From Oscillospiraceae bacterium (GTDB lineage Bacteria > Bacillota > Clostridia > Oscillospirales > Oscillospiraceae): 64,000 bases of DNA. Of this stretch, positions 5,502 through 53,336 are shown piece after piece. The stretch's first letter is position 1. Each line of letters starts with the position of its first letter. The translations under genes were made by a program, and so were the position numbers. The notes beneath the pieces are model-generated. The model did not search any database and was not told the DNA's origin. It worked only from the letters and a program-made list of their open reading frames with translations. The DNA is taken from positions 22,238-86,237 of the forward strand of contig JAFUNI010000006.1 of the NCBI GenBank assembly GCA_017482385.1, in the 5' to 3' direction.

Positions 5502-6206
5502 TTATTTATACAGATCTTTCAGTTTTCGTATGGTAGATCCGCCGTAGGCATTCTCTGTCAGATTGATGAAATCCGTAACCGTTGTTTCTCCACCCAGGGT
5601 CAATCCCCTGTCCTTTACGAAGGCATTTCTGCCGGCCATACAAGAGCCGGTCAACCGGTGATGCCAGTCGAACAGATCCTGGTTGGGATAGGGCTTGTCC
5701 TTGTCCGGGTGCGCCTTGACGAACTCAGCAATCCGATCTTCCTCCGGCATATCATCGAACATCTTATCCGTCAGCGCAGTCATAGCTTGGTGCAGATCGT
5801 CACCATGGGCAAAAAGATCGTTGCCCTTCACCACATAGCATGGTGTCATCGTCAGATCCGACCGAAGGATGAATCCCTTCGCAACATTGCCTTTGATGGA
5901 TGTAAAGATAGTGGGTACCTGATCAACCAGATACACAGTATGTCCGTTGATCTCAGCAAGACCGCCGTCGCCGGAGCCGGAGCCGGAGCCGTAGCCGGAG
6001 CCGTCGCCGGAGCCGGAGCCGTAGCCGGAGCCGTCGCCGTCGCCGGAGCCGTTGCCGTAGCCGGAGCCGTCGCCGGAGCCGTCGCCGGAGCCGTCGCCGG
6101 AGCCGGAGCCGGAGCCGTAGCCGGAGCCGTCGCCGGAGCCGTCGCCGTAGCCGTCGCTAATAGATAAGAATGCCTTGATCTTCTCCTGCAGCTTTACATC
6201 TTCCAT
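5502..6206 (-). CDS. Phage protein with N-terminal X-Gly tandem repeat (possibly DUF7666-like)
   Basis: 234 residues. Residues 1-17 form a short helix-prone leader, residues 18-82 are an almost uninterrupted X-Gly dipeptide repeat with X = Ser, Asp, Tyr or Asn, and residues 83-234 form a globular domain beginning LAEINGHTVYLVD. The globular part resembles a domain recurrent in phage early regions that I recall as DUF7666; I cannot verify that. At DNA level the repeat is a hexanucleotide array (GGC plus a variable codon plus GGC). It starts by overlapping the preceding gene and lies 78 bp before the ATPase gene. Function unknown. Confidence 0.75.
   Translation of the reverse strand: MEDVKLQEKIKAFLSISDGYGDGSGDGSGYGSGSGSGDGSGDGSGDGSGYGNGSGDGDGSGYGSGSGDGSGYGSGSGSGDGGLAEINGHTVYLVDQVPTIFTSIKGNVAKGFILRSDLTMTPCYVVKGNDLFAHGDDLHQAMTALTDKMFDDMPEEDRIAEFVKAHPDKDKPYPNQDLFDWHHRLTGSCMAGRNAFVKDRGLTLGGETTVTDFINLTENAYGGSTIRKLKDLYK
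5964..6156 (-). repeat. Hexanucleotide minisatellite encoding X-Gly repeats
   Basis: About 190 bp of 6-bp units on the minus strand (GGC followed by TCC, GAC, TAC or AAC). Nearly every Gly codon is GGC. Such an array is expected to change length by slippage in steps of two residues without breaking the frame. The unit order is irregular, with longer internal duplications such as GSGDGSGYGS recurring. Confidence 0.9.
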
Positions 6207-9961: not shown

Positions 9962-11263
9962 ATGAGAAAACCAACAAAATGGATTGCCGCATTACTGGCG
10001 ATTGTGTTATTGCTTTCTGGATGCTCTGTATCCACCGTAGACGAAGCTACGAAGCCGACAGAAACCATCAATCTTACAGCGGTCACCTCTGCGCCAACAG
10101 AGGCTTCAACAACCGCCACGGCGGCATTAACGACCCAAACTGAGGCACCAACAACAAAGCCCACAACAGTGCCTACAACCGCACCCACTATTAAAACTGC
10201 ACCGACCACTACCCCTACAACCGTTCCCACAACACCGCCCGCAAAGACTTCCTTCAGTGTTCATTTCATTGATGTAGGCCAAGCGGATGCAGCATTGGTT
10301 GAATGTGACGGCCATTATATGCTGATCGATGGCGGCAACAAGGCCGACTCTAATGTCATCTACTCTGTACTGAAGAAGGCTGCCGTGCCTAAGCTGGACA
10401 TCGTGGTTGGTACCCACGCACACGAGGATCATATCGGTGGCTTGCCCGGTGCATTCAATTATACCACCGCAGATATTACACTCTGCCCGGTCAAGAACTA
10501 TGACAGCAATGCCTTTGAGGATTTTGCCAAATACGCAACACAAAAAGGCGGCGGCATTACTGTTCCTAAAAAGGGCGATACCTACTCCCTGGGAAGCGCA
10601 ACCGTAAAGATCCTTGGTGTCAATGGTGGCAGCGACACAAATGATACATCCATTGTCCTCCGGATTGACTACGGCAAGACATCCTTCCTGTTTACCGGCG
10701 ATGCTGAACGTGAAGCAGAGCAGGCTATTCTGAGCACCGGCGAAGATCTGTCCGCTACTGTTTTGAAAGTTGGACACCACGGCAGCGACACTAGCACTTC
10801 TTACCCCTTCCTGCGTGAGATTATGCCAAAGTATGCCGTGATCTCTGTCGGTACTGGCAACAGCTACGGACATCCGACAGAAGATACTTTGAGCCGCTTG
10901 CGCGATGCTGATGTGAAGGTGTTCCGGACGGATGTGCAAGGTGATATCTTCTGCACCAGCGACGGAAACGAAGTCACCTTCTCCGTTACCAGGAATGCCG
11001 GCGCAGATGTGTTCGGAGGTATTGGAGAGAACAGCACTCAGACCAAACCTACCACCGCTCCGACTACTCCACCTACCACCAAAGCCACTACAGAACCCGA
11101 AAACACTCCTGTAGTTGAACCCGTTGGAGATATGGTTTGGATTCCCAAAACCGGAAAGAAATATCACTCCAGTTCCAGCTGCAGCAATATGAAGAATCCC
11201 TCTAAGGTCACAAGATCGCAAGCTATTCAGATGGGTTACGACCCCTGCAAAAAGTGCTATTGA
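9962..11263 (+). CDS. Lipoprotein with ComEC-like metallo-beta-lactamase domain (prophage cargo)
   Basis: 433 residues. Lipobox LLSGC at about 18-21, a Thr/Pro-rich linker to about residue 95, then a metallo-beta-lactamase fold beginning FSVHFIDVGQADAALV. The metal ligands are visible: HAHEDH at 152-157, a downstream TGDAE and KVGHHGS. This is the MBL type fused to ComEC in DNA uptake, often found alone in clostridial lipoproteins. A second Thr/Pro linker leads to a C-terminal Cys motif (SSCSNMKN and DPCKKC), probably a small metal-binding module. Possible roles include extracellular nucleic acid or phosphoester hydrolysis. Confidence 0.85.
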   Translation: MRKPTKWIAALLAIVLLLSGCSVSTVDEATKPTETINLTAVTSAPTEASTTATAALTTQTEAPTTKPTTVPTTAPTIKTAPTTTPTTVPTTPPAKTSFSVHFIDVGQADAALVECDGHYMLIDGGNKADSNVIYSVLKKAAVPKLDIVVGTHAHEDHIGGLPGAFNYTTADITLCPVKNYDSNAFEDFAKYATQKGGGITVPKKGDTYSLGSATVKILGVNGGSDTNDTSIVLRIDYGKTSFLFTGDAEREAEQAILSTGEDLSATVLKVGHHGSDTSTSYPFLREIMPKYAVISVGTGNSYGHPTEDTLSRLRDADVKVFRTDVQGDIFCTSDGNEVTFSVTRNAGADVFGGIGENSTQTKPTTAPTTPPTTKATTEPENTPVVEPVGDMVWIPKTGKKYHSSSSCSNMKNPSKVTRSQAIQMGYDPCKKCY

Positions 11264-11482: not shown

Positions 11483-11505
11483 CCGCCCCGGCGGTACCGG
11501 GGCGG
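11483..11505 (-). terminator. Terminator of the toxin gene
   Basis: A perfect 9-bp stem (CCGCCCCGG / CCGGGGCGG) with a 5-nt loop, followed on the minus strand by a T6 run. It lies just beyond the toxin stop codon at 11514 and just after the stop of the short repressor, so it separates convergent genes. Confidence 0.85.
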
Positions 11506-11513
11506 ACAGGAAA

Positions 11514-11963
11514 TCATATGTACTTCTCAAAATATTGCAAGGTTGAACACTGTAAGAGCTGCTTGTTTCGAGGGATTTCTGGATGTTCTTTGGCTTTTTT
11601 ATATTTCTTAATATACCGCTGAAGCTTCTGCACAACCTGATGCTCATCAATCTGCTTCAACACCTTGAATTCATTCGGGCGGACATACGGTTGCGTAGTT
11701 GATATGTATCGTGCGGGATTTTCGATCACCACAGCCTTTGTAACATCAATACCGCAATTATTATCCTTATCCGTCCAAATCGCAAACTCATGGTTATGCT
11801 TAATGTTAGACCGCAACGGAACAGCCCACACAACACCATTAATTACCACTTTAATCCTTATATAAGGACGATAATCTTTTTGCTCAATCTCGGTACACTT
11901 CTCATACCGCTTATAAAATTTCTCCGTAAGGAATACTATTTTCAACAACTTTCGACACCCCAT
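11514..11963 (-). CDS. Type III toxin-antitoxin endoribonuclease toxin (CptN/TenpN/ToxN-like)
   Basis: 149 residues as an ATG ORF; in-frame TTG codons at 11948 and 11945 are better placed behind GGGGTG and would give an N-terminus reading KIVFLTEKFYKRY, so the true start is uncertain. Features match my recollection of type III toxins: RPYIRIKVVINGV, a WAVPLRSNIKHNH strand, GIDVTKAVVI, and a helical C-terminus (KKAKEHPEIPRN). Such toxins cut RNA at A-rich sites and are held inactive by a processed repeat RNA. The genetic layout fits: a terminator sits directly before the gene and a repeat RNA upstream. Family subtype is tentative. Confidence 0.65.
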   Translation of the reverse strand: MGCRKLLKIVFLTEKFYKRYEKCTEIEQKDYRPYIRIKVVINGVVWAVPLRSNIKHNHEFAIWTDKDNNCGIDVTKAVVIENPARYISTTQPYVRPNEFKVLKQIDEHQVVQKLQRYIKKYKKAKEHPEIPRNKQLLQCSTLQYFEKYI

Positions 11964-11968
11964 TTAGT

Positions 11969-12153
11969 AAAAAACGGCCTGGAGGCCAGGCCGTCTTCTC
12001 AGTGAGCATTTTTTTGTTTACCCTCCTCACGCTCTATGAGGAGATCAACTCAGTGGGCATTCTTTATTTGCGACTTGCGCCCTACAAGTCTGGGCTGATG
12101 GTACAGACAGGATTGATGACGAAGTCATTTTCTTGTCAGGCGGATCTCTCCGC
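11969..12153 (-). ncRNA. Candidate type III antitoxin RNA with diverged tandem repeats
   Basis: Between a minus-strand extended -10 (12165-12160) and the terminator, the transcript carries repeating units. Two units share the order hairpin, A-rich tract, AATGC(C/T)CACTGAG-like start of the next unit. Their stems differ (GACTT/AAGTC at 12072-12090; CTCCTCA/TGAGGAG at 12023-12043) yet both pair perfectly and both loops read TAGRGCG on the minus strand. The 13-bp element CTCAGTGRGCATT (plus strand) recurs at 11998 and 12049, a 51-bp period. An upstream GCGGA/TCCGC hairpin may begin a third unit. Compensatory stem change argues for a functional RNA. Confidence 0.6.
11974..11994 (-). terminator. 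Internal terminator between antitoxin RNA and toxin
   Basis: Minus-strand 9-bp perfect stem (ACGGCCTGG / CCAGGCCGT), 3-nt loop, followed by six T residues (11974-11969). The toxin ATG is 6 nt beyond the T-run. A leaky terminator at this position is the hallmark of type III loci, giving much antitoxin RNA and little toxin mRNA. Confidence 0.85.
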
Positions 12154-12159
12154 ACTGTC

Positions 12160-12168
12160 ATTATATCA
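12160..12168 (-). promoter_or_regulatory. Extended -10 promoter for the antitoxin RNA
   Basis: On the minus strand TGATATAAT (TGN plus consensus TATAAT, 12165-12160). The -35 region at 17-bp spacing is weak (GTATCT), which is tolerated by extended -10 promoters. It is placed about 10 nt before the first hairpin of the repeat RNA. Confidence 0.6.
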
Positions 12169-12253
12169 TACATCGTCAAAAAAGATACTTGGAAAATTGT
12201 ACGAAATTTTGCAATGGTTACTTATGTTAACTTATGCTTTTTTGCACATTTTG

Positions 12254-12435: not shown

Positions 12436-13623
12436 ATGTCAAGAAAATCAGCAGCCGGTACCGGCACGATCCGGAAGAAAACCATTACCCGCAATGGCAA
12501 AGAATACACCTACTGGGAGGCTCGCTATACATTTGGCCGAGATCCTGGCACCGGCAAACAGATCCAACGCAGCATTACCGGCAAAACCCAAAAAGAAGTA
12601 TCTCAAAAGCTGAAGGCAGCCACCGCCGCCATTGACGAAGGCGCCTATACAGCCCCCAGTAAACTGACGGTCGGCCAGTGGTTGGATATTTGGACAGCAG
12701 AATACCTGGGCGGTGTAAAGCCCTCTACTGTCACCTCATATAAGGCTACCGTGCGGACACATCTCAAACCTGGACTTGGTGCAATCCGCCTTGAATCATT
12801 AACCGCGCATACCATCCAAGGGCTGTACAACAACCTGGGGGCACAGGAAAAAGGCGGCAAGTCTCTGTCAGCCAAAACTATAAAGAACGTCCACGGTGTT
12901 CTTCATAAGGCTCTGCAGCAAGCAGTGGCTAATGGCTATATCCGGTTTAATCCTACGGATTCCTGTGTGTTACCCCGGGTAATTAAAAAAGAGCTGCAGC
13001 CACTGGACGAAGATCAGATAACAGCCTTCCTGAAGGCTATCAAGGGCCACAGATTGGAAGATCTATTTATAACAACCTTATTCACCGGAATGCGTGAAGG
13101 CGAGGTCTGCGGCCTGCTCTGGGACTGCGTAGACCTAACTAAAGGCACTATAACAATCAATAAGCAGTTACAGTTGGTACGCAATACCCGGGGAGATCAC
13201 CAGCTCATGCCCACCAAGAACAGCAAAGGCCGCACTATTACCCTTGCTCCCTCTGTGGTGAAGGTTCTGCGCAATACCAAAAAGGCACAATTAGAGAATC
13301 GGCTCCGGTACGGTGAGTGCTGGACAGACAGTGGCTTTGTATTTACCGACGAGCTTGGACACTACCTAAAGCCCCAGGCTGTCCGCAGGGAATTCAAAAA
13401 GGTAGTTGTGGATATCGGTTGCCCGGATACAAGATTCCACGACCTACGGCACTCCTACGCCGTGGCTGCCCTTAAGTCCGGAGACGACATCAAGACCGTG
13501 CAGGAGAATTTGGGTCATGCTACAGCCTCATTTACCCTTGATATCTACGGCCACGTCACCGAGAAAATGAAGCAGGACAGTGCTAACCGGATGGAGCAAT
13601 TTATCAAGGCTGTAAACGCATAA
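12436..13623 (+). CDS. int: Tyrosine site-specific integrase
   Basis: 395 residues from the ATG at 12436; an in-frame extension to 12331 runs through the leader and lacks a ribosome binding site. An N-terminal arm-binding segment (GTGTIRKKT to YWEARYTFG) is followed by a SAM-like core-binding domain (about 65-150) and the catalytic domain. Catalytic residues are visible: Arg in FTGMREGEV, the HxxR box HDLRHS, His in LGHATA, and the nucleophile Tyr in DIYGHV near the C-terminus. It should integrate and, with an excisionase, excise the element at the tRNA-Gln 3' end just downstream. Confidence 0.95.
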   Translation: MSRKSAAGTGTIRKKTITRNGKEYTYWEARYTFGRDPGTGKQIQRSITGKTQKEVSQKLKAATAAIDEGAYTAPSKLTVGQWLDIWTAEYLGGVKPSTVTSYKATVRTHLKPGLGAIRLESLTAHTIQGLYNNLGAQEKGGKSLSAKTIKNVHGVLHKALQQAVANGYIRFNPTDSCVLPRVIKKELQPLDEDQITAFLKAIKGHRLEDLFITTLFTGMREGEVCGLLWDCVDLTKGTITINKQLQLVRNTRGDHQLMPTKNSKGRTITLAPSVVKVLRNTKKAQLENRLRYGECWTDSGFVFTDELGHYLKPQAVRREFKKVVVDIGCPDTRFHDLRHSYAVAALKSGDDIKTVQENLGHATASFTLDIYGHVTEKMKQDSANRMEQFIKAVNA

Positions 13624-13645
13624 GGGAAAACAAAAGGGAAAACAA
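13622..13645 (+). repeat. Two perfect 12-bp direct repeats at the integrase stop
   Basis: AAGGGAAAACAA occurs twice head to tail, overlapping the integrase stop codon and lying about 100-120 bp from the tRNA 3' end. Position and arrangement fit arm-type integrase binding sites next to the core attachment site; a sequence accident from the A-rich tail is possible. Confidence 0.5.
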
Positions 13646-13649
13646 AAAA

Positions 13650-13736
13650 CCGCCTTTCCCCAATTTAAACATTTCAAGGGGCAAAGCGGCAAAATTTAAA
13701 GAAAAAACCCGGTATCTATAACAGATTCCGGGTTTT
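13650..13736 (+). terminator. Terminator hairpins between integrase and tRNA-Gln
   Basis: Two hairpins. The first (13650-13689) is imperfect, CCGC...CCCC with GGGG...GCGG. The second is a clean 9-bp stem AAAACCCGG (13704-13712) with CCGGGTTTT (13728-13736), ending in four T residues. It would end integrase transcription and, in the other direction, transcription leaving the tRNA gene. Confidence 0.75.
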
Positions 13737-13741
13737 CCCAT

Positions 13742-13790
13742 TGGCAGAGGATGAGGGATTCGAACCCCCGCAAACGGAGTCAGAGTCCGG
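13742..13790. other. Probable attachment site (attR-side core in tRNA-Gln 3' half)
   Basis: The integrase reads toward the 3' end of the tRNA gene and stops 119 bp away, the classic layout for insertion into a tRNA 3' end with the gene restored by phage sequence. The core length cannot be set because the other end of the element is outside the window. Confidence 0.5.
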
Positions 13791-13815
13791 TGTGCTACCG
13801 TTACACTAATCCTCT
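13745..13815 (-). tRNA. tRNA-Gln (anticodon CUG), CCA encoded at 13742-13744
   Basis: Minus-strand cloverleaf: 7-bp acceptor AGAGGAT/ATCCTCT, discriminator G and encoded CCA; D arm GTG/CAC; anticodon stem CCGGA/TCCGT with loop CTCTGAC giving anticodon CTG; T arm GGGGG/CCCTC-type with TTCGAAT. The acceptor and T arm pair fully. It reads CAG glutamine codons and its 3' half is the probable phage attachment site. Confidence 0.93.
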
Positions 13816-13940
13816 ATCACACGGACAGGTTTTATTATAACCACGAAACGAAAAAAGTCAAGCATTTTTTTCGTTTTTTACCAGTTTTTTCTCCGTGGTT
13901 CGCAGGTAGTATTTCCATAATCAAAGATTTTATGCAGGAG

Positions 13941-52957: not shown

Positions 52958-53303
52958 CGACCGGGTCGGACAGCCGCGGCTGAGCCCCCAACGGGACTCA
53001 GGTGAGGAAAGTCCGGGCTCCACAGGGCAAGGATAACGGGTAACGCCCGCCGGGGGTGACCCCAGGACAAGTGCAACAGAGATATACCGCCCAAAGATTC
53101 TTTGGGCAAGGGTGAAAAGGTGGGGTAAGAGCCCACCCGGCCCATAGAGATATGGGTTTTACGATGTAAACTCTATCCGGAGCAACGCCGTGGAGGAACA
53201 ACAGGTTTGCCCGACCGTTCCGAGGAGGCGGCTGCATTCCGTGAGCAATTGCGGAAGTAGATAGATGGCTGTCAAGACAGAACCCGGCTTATAGACCCGA
53301 TCG
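52958..53303 (+). ncRNA. rnpB: RNase P RNA, class A
   Basis: 346 nt. The universally conserved P4 5' strand region (GAGGAAAGTCCGGGCT) lies at 53003-53018, and the 3' end carries ACAGAACCCGGCTTAT. The terminal P1 helix pairs CGACCGGGTC (52958-52967) with GACCCGATCG (53294-53303). It cleaves 5' leaders of pre-tRNAs together with the RnpA protein. A clear promoter and terminator flank it. Confidence 0.97.
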
Positions 53304-53306
53304 TAT

Positions 53307-53336
53307 AAAAAAGCACCGCAATTGCGGTGCTTTTTT
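53307..53336 (+). terminator. rnpB terminator
   Basis: Perfect palindrome: AAAAAAGCACCGCAA and its complement ending in six T residues; loop closed at AATT. Confidence 0.93.

What the first reader, a model, noticed from the sequence alone, without database searches (positions are those of the whole stretch)
11483..12170. Candidate type III toxin-antitoxin locus carried by the prophage
Seen directly: an extended -10 promoter, an RNA region with diverged tandem units, a perfect terminator, then a 149-codon ORF starting 6 nt after the T-run. Two units keep the same order (stem-loop, A-rich tract, AATGC start of the next unit). Their stems share no sequence yet both pair fully, and both loops read TAGRGCG. 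Known: type III systems (ToxIN, CptIN, TenpIN) have this layout, with the toxin RNase cutting its own antitoxin at A-rich junctions between repeats. The protein has motifs I associate with these toxins. Inference: a phage-borne anti-phage or stabilising system, possibly of an unusual subtype because repeats are few and diverged.
Basis: partly seen in the sequence, partly recalled or inferred. Interest (0 to 1): 0.82.

Follow-up and report, generated by a model that had tools for sequence, protein, structure and literature searches.

The report
Prophage-borne type III toxin-antitoxin pair
A virus dormant in a bacterial genome carries a known kind of gene pair, a predicted RNA-cutting toxin held in check by a knotted RNA, and look-alike copies of that RNA without the toxin turn up in other phage sequences, where they might act as antidotes.

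Summary
Confirmed, and ordinary in kind: the minus-strand locus 12168-11483 is a TenpIN type III toxin-antitoxin system in a prophage. The ORF scores 129.4 bits against the curated TenpIN model (cut-off 90). RNA unit 2 scores 62 bits against Rfam 6A (RF02925, cut-off 41.2), a family typed only "sRNA". The layout recurs in 13 further loci (one with a broken toxin frame), nearly always with two units, so it is not an unusual subtype. Correction: "AATGC" does not start the next unit; it ends the same unit by pairing with the loop, making each unit an H-type pseudoknot. That second stem pairs in 30 of 30 aligned units, and 3 of its 4 pairs covary among unit-1-type sequences. The A-rich tract is the crossing loop. 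New lead: 10 of 16 viral records with 6A units show no TenpN (records may be fragments). There the RNA lies among head and packaging genes at four different placements, and the GAAGA that follows the last unit in 12 of 14 toxin-linked arrays is absent in 7 of 7 loci examined. They may be natural anti-TenpIN RNA decoys. No function was tested.

The parts
12160..12168 (-). extended -10 promoter element TGATATAAT
   Evidence: read; no -35 match
12092..12159 (-). leader with two small hairpins (GCGGA/TCCGC and ATGAC/GTCAT)
   Evidence: fold, z -1.51
12049..12091 (-). antitoxin unit 1: stem 1 12090-12085 with 12077-12072; stem 2 (pseudoknot) GGGC 12082-12079 with GCCC 12058-12055; crossing loop 12071-12059
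   Evidence: 6A match 18.8 bits, below cut-off; stem 2 covaries in relatives
11998..12046 (-). antitoxin unit 2: stem 1 12043-12037 with 12029-12023; stem 2 (pseudoknot) GAGC 12034-12031 with GCTC 12007-12004; crossing loop 12022-12008
   Evidence: Rfam RF02925 6A, 62 bits, cut-off 41.2; pair counts
11970..11998 (-). intrinsic terminator between antitoxin and toxin
   Evidence: 13 pairs, -20.6 kcal/mol, z -4.77
11514..11963 (-). TenpN toxin gene (ATG 11963; likelier start TTG 11948)
   Evidence: NF047358 129.4 bits, cut-off 90; phrog_8049 81.7 bits
11483..11505 (-). terminator after the toxin gene
   Evidence: 10 pairs
12436..13623 (+). prophage integrase (setting)
   Evidence: phrog_1, 248 bits
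11275..11478 (+). repressor-like gene (setting)
   Evidence: phrog_8

Best explanation
A TenpIN type III toxin-antitoxin locus of a prophage. One promoter makes an RNA with two pseudoknotted antitoxin units; the terminator lets only part of the transcripts run on into the toxin gene. TenpN is expected to be an endoribonuclease that cuts the antitoxin transcript near the unit ends (candidate GAAGA/GTTGA junctions) and is then held inactive by the pseudoknots. When phage infection or loss of the prophage stops antitoxin synthesis, freed TenpN would cut cellular and viral RNA. Lying between integrase and repressor-type genes, it probably protects the lysogen from other phages and/or helps keep the prophage. 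Shown: toxin homology, layout, pseudoknot covariation, prophage setting. Inferred: expression, RNase activity, processing site, neutralisation, biological role.
For: TenpIN profile well over cut-off; 18 invariant columns in 14 relatives; Rfam 6A match; TenpN directly downstream of 6A in four of four distinct genomes found by 6A; same order of parts in 13 further loci; stem 2 pairs in 19 of 19 and 11 of 11 units; integrase, repressor-like, excisionase-like genes around it. Published: type III loci are defined by toxin homologue, terminator and tandem repeats, and TenpIN of Photorhabdus aborts some phages (PMC5086642 and PMC5377504, passages).
Against: No Pfam or PADLOC match. Unit 1 is below the 6A cut-off. 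Hairpin energies are near those of shuffles. No expression or activity data. No fold could be predicted. No attachment repeat was found.
Confidence: 0.88

Rival explanations
1. The RNA is a cis-acting leader or free-standing small RNA with another job, and its place before TenpN is secondary.
For: Rfam types 6A as 'sRNA' with no function in the line printed. 10 of 16 viral records with 6A units show no TenpN.
Against: Four of four distinct genomes found by 6A have TenpN directly downstream. Other TenpN loci without 6A (L012-L016) also have two repeat units that read as pseudoknots before a terminator (by eye). The units have the published form of type III antitoxins (PMC5086642, passages).
Confidence: 0.05
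2. The system is a decayed remnant: the toxin or antitoxin no longer works.
For: Only two units, unit 1 shorter and below the 6A cut-off; L007 shows that such loci do break.
Against: Open frame with the invariant columns kept; both stems intact; same two-unit form in relatives of 58-82% protein identity in which the frame is open.
Confidence: 0.07
3. About the toxin-less phage copies only: they are remnants of TenpIN loci that lost the toxin, not decoys.
For: Group A keeps both units and a terminator like a whole array, and its array is 89% identical over 71 nt to a genomic TenpIN array. No host or activity is known. Records may be fragments.
Against: Four different placements among head and packaging genes on their strand; stems intact in the copies examined; in group B the DNA just upstream of the unit differs between phages while the unit and the DNA after it are kept.
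Confidence: 0.4

Closest known systems
TenpIN type III toxin-antitoxin family (type member from Photorhabdus luminescens)
   Same: toxin homology over the curated cut-off; tandem RNA units, terminator, toxin in that order
   Different: sits in a prophage beside the integrase; its unit belongs to Rfam 6A, which only part of the TenpN loci seen here have (2 of 7)
Rfam RF02925 6A RNA
   Same: unit 2 matches over the full model, 62 bits
   Different: the Rfam structure line printed has one hairpin; relatives show a second, pseudoknot stem
ToxIN and CptIN antitoxins
   Same: H-type pseudoknot units, toxin downstream of a terminator (PMC5086642, passages)
   Different: toxin matches the TenpIN model, not those families; unit sequence differs
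pseudo-ToxI of phage PhiTE, and RNA anti-CRISPRs (for the toxin-less copies)
   Same: phage DNA resembling a defence system's RNA unit, without the system
   Different: wild-type PhiTE has 1.5 repeats, no full pseudoknot, and escapes only after expansion (PMC3475682, passages); here whole pseudoknots stand in natural phage contigs. RNA anti-CRISPRs mimic CRISPR repeats, not antitoxins (PMC10651486, passages)

Membership tests
TenpIN type III TA | toxin homologous to TenpN | tested here: met
   NF047358 129.4 bits, cut-off 90; Pfam and PADLOC have no match
TenpIN type III TA | intrinsic terminator just before the toxin gene | tested here: met
   11998-11970, z -4.77
TenpIN type III TA | tandem RNA repeats before the terminator | tested here: met
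   two units sharing loop, A-rich loop and tail, stems diverged
TenpIN type III TA | units fold as pseudoknots | tested here: met
   by covariation, not by experiment: stem 2 in 30 of 30 units, 3 of 4 pairs covarying in unit-1-type sequences
TenpIN type III TA | single promoter for both parts | tested here: inconclusive
   extended -10 at 12168-12160, read from sequence only
TenpIN type III TA | toxin is an endoribonuclease that processes the antitoxin | not testable with these tools
   needs biochemistry; fold prediction was off
TenpIN type III TA | RNA neutralises the toxin; abortive infection in some members | not testable with these tools
   needs experiment
Rfam RF02925 6A | score at or above the gathering threshold | tested here: met
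   unit 2: 62 bits, threshold 41.2; unit 1: 18.8 bits, not met on its own
ToxIN / CptIN | profile match of the toxin | tested here: not met
   no match up to E 10 in Pfam-A or PADLOC; in NCBIfam only TenpIN and one sub-cut-off unrelated family

The most novel reading that the evidence does not exclude
Phages carry natural, whole 6A/TenpI antitoxin pseudoknots without the toxin, built into their head and packaging regions, and use them as RNA decoys that hold host or prophage TenpN inactive during lytic growth. Lacking the GAAGA end, they may even be uncuttable inhibitors. Rfam 6A would then be one RNA used on both sides: antitoxin in prophage defence, anti-defence in rival phages.
Probability: 0.4. 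Interest if true: 0.72.

Novelty: new member of a known kind. Interest (0 to 1): 0.45.

Why it matters
The locus ties Rfam 6A, for which the tools print no function, to TenpIN toxins and supplies a second stem that the Rfam structure line lacks, giving a consensus structure for one branch of TenpI antitoxins; a sequence search of the PDB with this toxin found no relative. The same search turned up antitoxin pseudoknots without toxin in phage head and packaging regions, which makes natural RNA-based evasion of type III systems directly testable.

Tried and rejected
Pfam-A and PADLOC profiles: nothing. Named phage genomes: no protein match, no DNA match to the unit. Plasmids: 7 records with remote TenpN-like places under 60% identity, no match to the unit. 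'Unusual subtype': rejected, 13 of the 14 toxin-linked 6A arrays have two units (L056 has three; the first unit of L208 is read by eye). 'Cut at the A-rich tract': not favoured, the tract is the crossing loop. L057 (32.4 bits, below cut-off) and L130 judged chance matches by eye. The looser pattern added no unit beyond those already known (by eye). Attachment repeat: no shared stretch of 13 nt or more between window 13601-13850 and the contig to its left. Group B's longer stretch: z -0.22 and -0.37, no support from energy for further structure. Prophages of group A or B in bacterial genomes (250 of the family, 245 of the order): none seen; matches were the 6A units of TenpIN arrays (G000, G974, G1041) and short matches elsewhere, so the hosts of the toxin-less phages are unknown. 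Weinberg 2017 (thought from recall to be a possible source of 6A) is not held. Searches for 6A listed no paper that I could tell to be on Rfam 6A; the three look like chance or m6A hits.

Full report
What is there. On the minus strand an extended -10 element (12168-12160) is followed by a leader with small hairpins, two RNA units (12091-12049 and 12046-11998), a strong terminator (11998-11970, -20.6 kcal/mol, z -4.77) and a 149-codon ORF (11963-11514) with its own terminator behind it (11505-11483).

The protein. It matches NCBIfam NF047358, the curated TenpIN toxin model, at 129.4 bits over a cut-off of 90, and phrog_8049, a phage family of unknown function, at 81.7 bits. Pfam-A and PADLOC have no match; no solved structure is related by sequence. 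Fourteen aligned proteins share 18 invariant columns.

The RNA. Unit 2 matches Rfam RF02925, '6A RNA' (62 bits, cut-off 41.2); unit 1 scores 18.8, below cut-off. The whole genome has one match. The Rfam structure line has one hairpin. Relatives show a second stem: four loop bases pair with four bases after the A-rich tract. The pairs are GAGC/GCTC in window unit 2, GGGC/GCCC in window unit 1, GGAC/GTCC in L005 unit 1 and L022 unit 1, GGAT/ATCC in L100 unit 1. On 19 unit-2-type sequences 99.5% of cells pair and 8 of 11 pairs change on both sides (0 of 500 shuffles as high on either); stem 2 pairs in 19 of 19, with one of its four pairs covarying. On 11 unit-1-type sequences 95.4% of cells pair and 8 of 10 pairs change on both sides (0 of 500); stem 2 pairs in 11 of 11, with 3 of 4 pairs covarying. 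One measure, the number of pair types, was not exceptional (38 and 208 of 500 shuffles). Sliding the partners by 1-3 columns drops pairing to 27-49%. Caveats: related sequences can beat shuffles without structure; the single covarying stem-2 pair comes from L205, which I found with a pattern that already asked for GGGC and GCCC, as I did L208; the covariation rests mainly on units picked through their toxin, through Rfam or through the neighbouring unit 2, without regard to stem 2. Rows left out: exact duplicates (L031, L036, L037, L046, second unit of L056), L208 unit 1, and the later L217 and L219. The units thus read as H-type pseudoknots, the form published for ToxI and CptI (PMC5086642, passages).

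Junctions. GAAGA follows the last unit in 12 of 14 toxin-linked 6A arrays (not in L208, L219). After the first unit the window and seven other loci have GTTGATC instead; L010, L056 and L100 have GAAGA; L054 and L219 neither; L208 was not scored. This is a candidate processing site. In the window it overlaps the 5' arm of the terminator, so part of its conservation may have that cause.

Relatives. Over-cut-off 6A matches: 2 of 99 relatives, 2 of 394 genomes of the order, 2 of 398 of the phylum, the window's own genome counted each time; a third match (G827) is below cut-off and lies in coding DNA by eye. That makes four distinct genomes, TenpN directly downstream in 4 of 4. TenpN over cut-off: 3 of 101 genomes of the genus and 7 of 394 of the order. 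Of those 7 only 2 have an over-cut-off 6A match, and the loci of the other five (L012-L016) gave no 6A hit up to E 0.5: 6A marks one branch of TenpIN. L012-L016 have other unit sequences that also read as two pseudoknots before a terminator (by eye). L003 (genus), L217 and L219 (family) are further 6A-TenpN loci. The named relative L007 (Flintibacter muris) has a broken toxin frame.

Setting. Around the locus lie an integrase (phrog_1), repressor-like genes (phrog_8, twice), a phage metallo-protease family gene (phrog_87) and an excisionase-like gene (phrog_66, weak), and a tRNA-Gln. ORFs of the size and look of phage structural genes lie further left on the contig (by eye). No attachment repeat was found on the contig. 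In viral contigs L008 and L009 the locus likewise lies between an integrase and an ImmA/IrrE-like gene plus repressor; L027, L054 and L100 differ (by eye).

Toxin-less copies. A pattern that does not ask for stem 2 found 36 viral stretches, 13 of them with units by eye and script. All 13 records score over the 6A cut-off; 4 of 13 have TenpN. L100, L205 and L208 came; TenpN is on L100 and L208, not L205 (these three were not put to the 6A model). So 10 of 16 records show no TenpN: group A (L022, L031, L037, L046, identical where the held pieces overlap), group B (L025, L026, L036, L047), L034 and L205. The records are 4.4 to 56 kb and may be fragments, so absence is not proved. In group A two units and a terminator lie between a gene of a phage regulator family (phrog_36) and exonuclease, TerS and TerL genes; in group B one unit lies downstream of a head-protein gene in L025; in L205 it lies 1.3 kb before TerL; in L034 it lies between ORFs that look like portal and scaffold (by eye). 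In each it is on the strand of those genes. L022 and L034 are related phages (70.8% over 2.7 kb) that carry the unit at different places, so these are four placements rather than four unrelated lineages. In group B the few hundred bases just upstream of the unit differ between phages while the unit and what follows are kept, and homology resumes further upstream. Of 7 loci examined (L031, L037, L046 left out as copies of L022) none has GAAGA after the last unit. They could be decoys against TenpN, as expanded pseudo-ToxI is in PhiTE escape mutants (PMC3475682, passages), or remnants. Against decoys: no host, expression or activity is known, and a single aligned pseudo-ToxI repeat did not suppress ToxN in that paper's over-expression assay, which matters because group B, L034 and L205 have one unit. 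Also TenpIN with toxin in L027 sits near phage genes outside a clear lysogeny module.

Literature. I read passages only, of PMC5086642, PMC5377504, PMC10853763, PMC3475682, PMC12804078, PMC8040213, PMC10651486 and PMC12548467. In the listings (titles and abstract starts, capped lists) I saw no paper naming 6A as a TenpI antitoxin or describing natural stand-alone TenpI units in phages. The library lacks most subscription papers; Rfam's own page was not seen. PMC8040213 reports candidate RNAs upstream of ToxN in Clostridiales and Leptotrichia, so such antitoxins have been met from the RNA side before. A 2025 review there notes that phages may carry compatible antitoxins, citing PhiTE (PMC12548467).

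Verdict. A sound, conserved TenpIN system: a new member of a known kind, with a corrected RNA structure, an assignment for Rfam 6A, and a testable lead in phages.

Noticed in passing
L022 5072-5160, L025 2366-2410, L026 2279-2327, L034 2998-3048, L205 1725-1770: 6A/TenpI antitoxin pseudoknots without a TenpN gene on the record, among phage head and packaging genes.
   Followed up: partly
L025 2364-2547 and L047 849-1033; L026 2277-2417: Group B unit is followed by about 90-140 nt of kept sequence with a hairpin AAGAACCCA...TGGGTTCTT; the whole may be a longer phage RNA of unknown role, though fold energy gives no support.
   Followed up: partly
L018 1040-1926 and L006 1486-1977: TenpN-like proteins below the curated cut-off; L018 has upstream repeats of another make, possibly a further type III branch.
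   Followed up: no
window 11514-11963 against phrog_8049: A PHROG family of unknown function matches the TenpN toxin at 81.7 bits and could be named.
   Followed up: no
window 9962-11263 (+): Prophage gene with a metallo-beta-lactamase-like HAHEDH motif (recalled) and a threonine-rich stretch; matches phrog_14556 of unknown function at 333 bits.
   Followed up: no
window 5502-6206 (-): Predicted protein with a long GDGSG-type glycine-rich repeat near its start.
   Followed up: no
L040 22-9834: Viral contig piece dense in tRNA genes.
   Followed up: no
window 52958-53307 (+): Bacterial RNase P RNA, class A.
   Followed up: no
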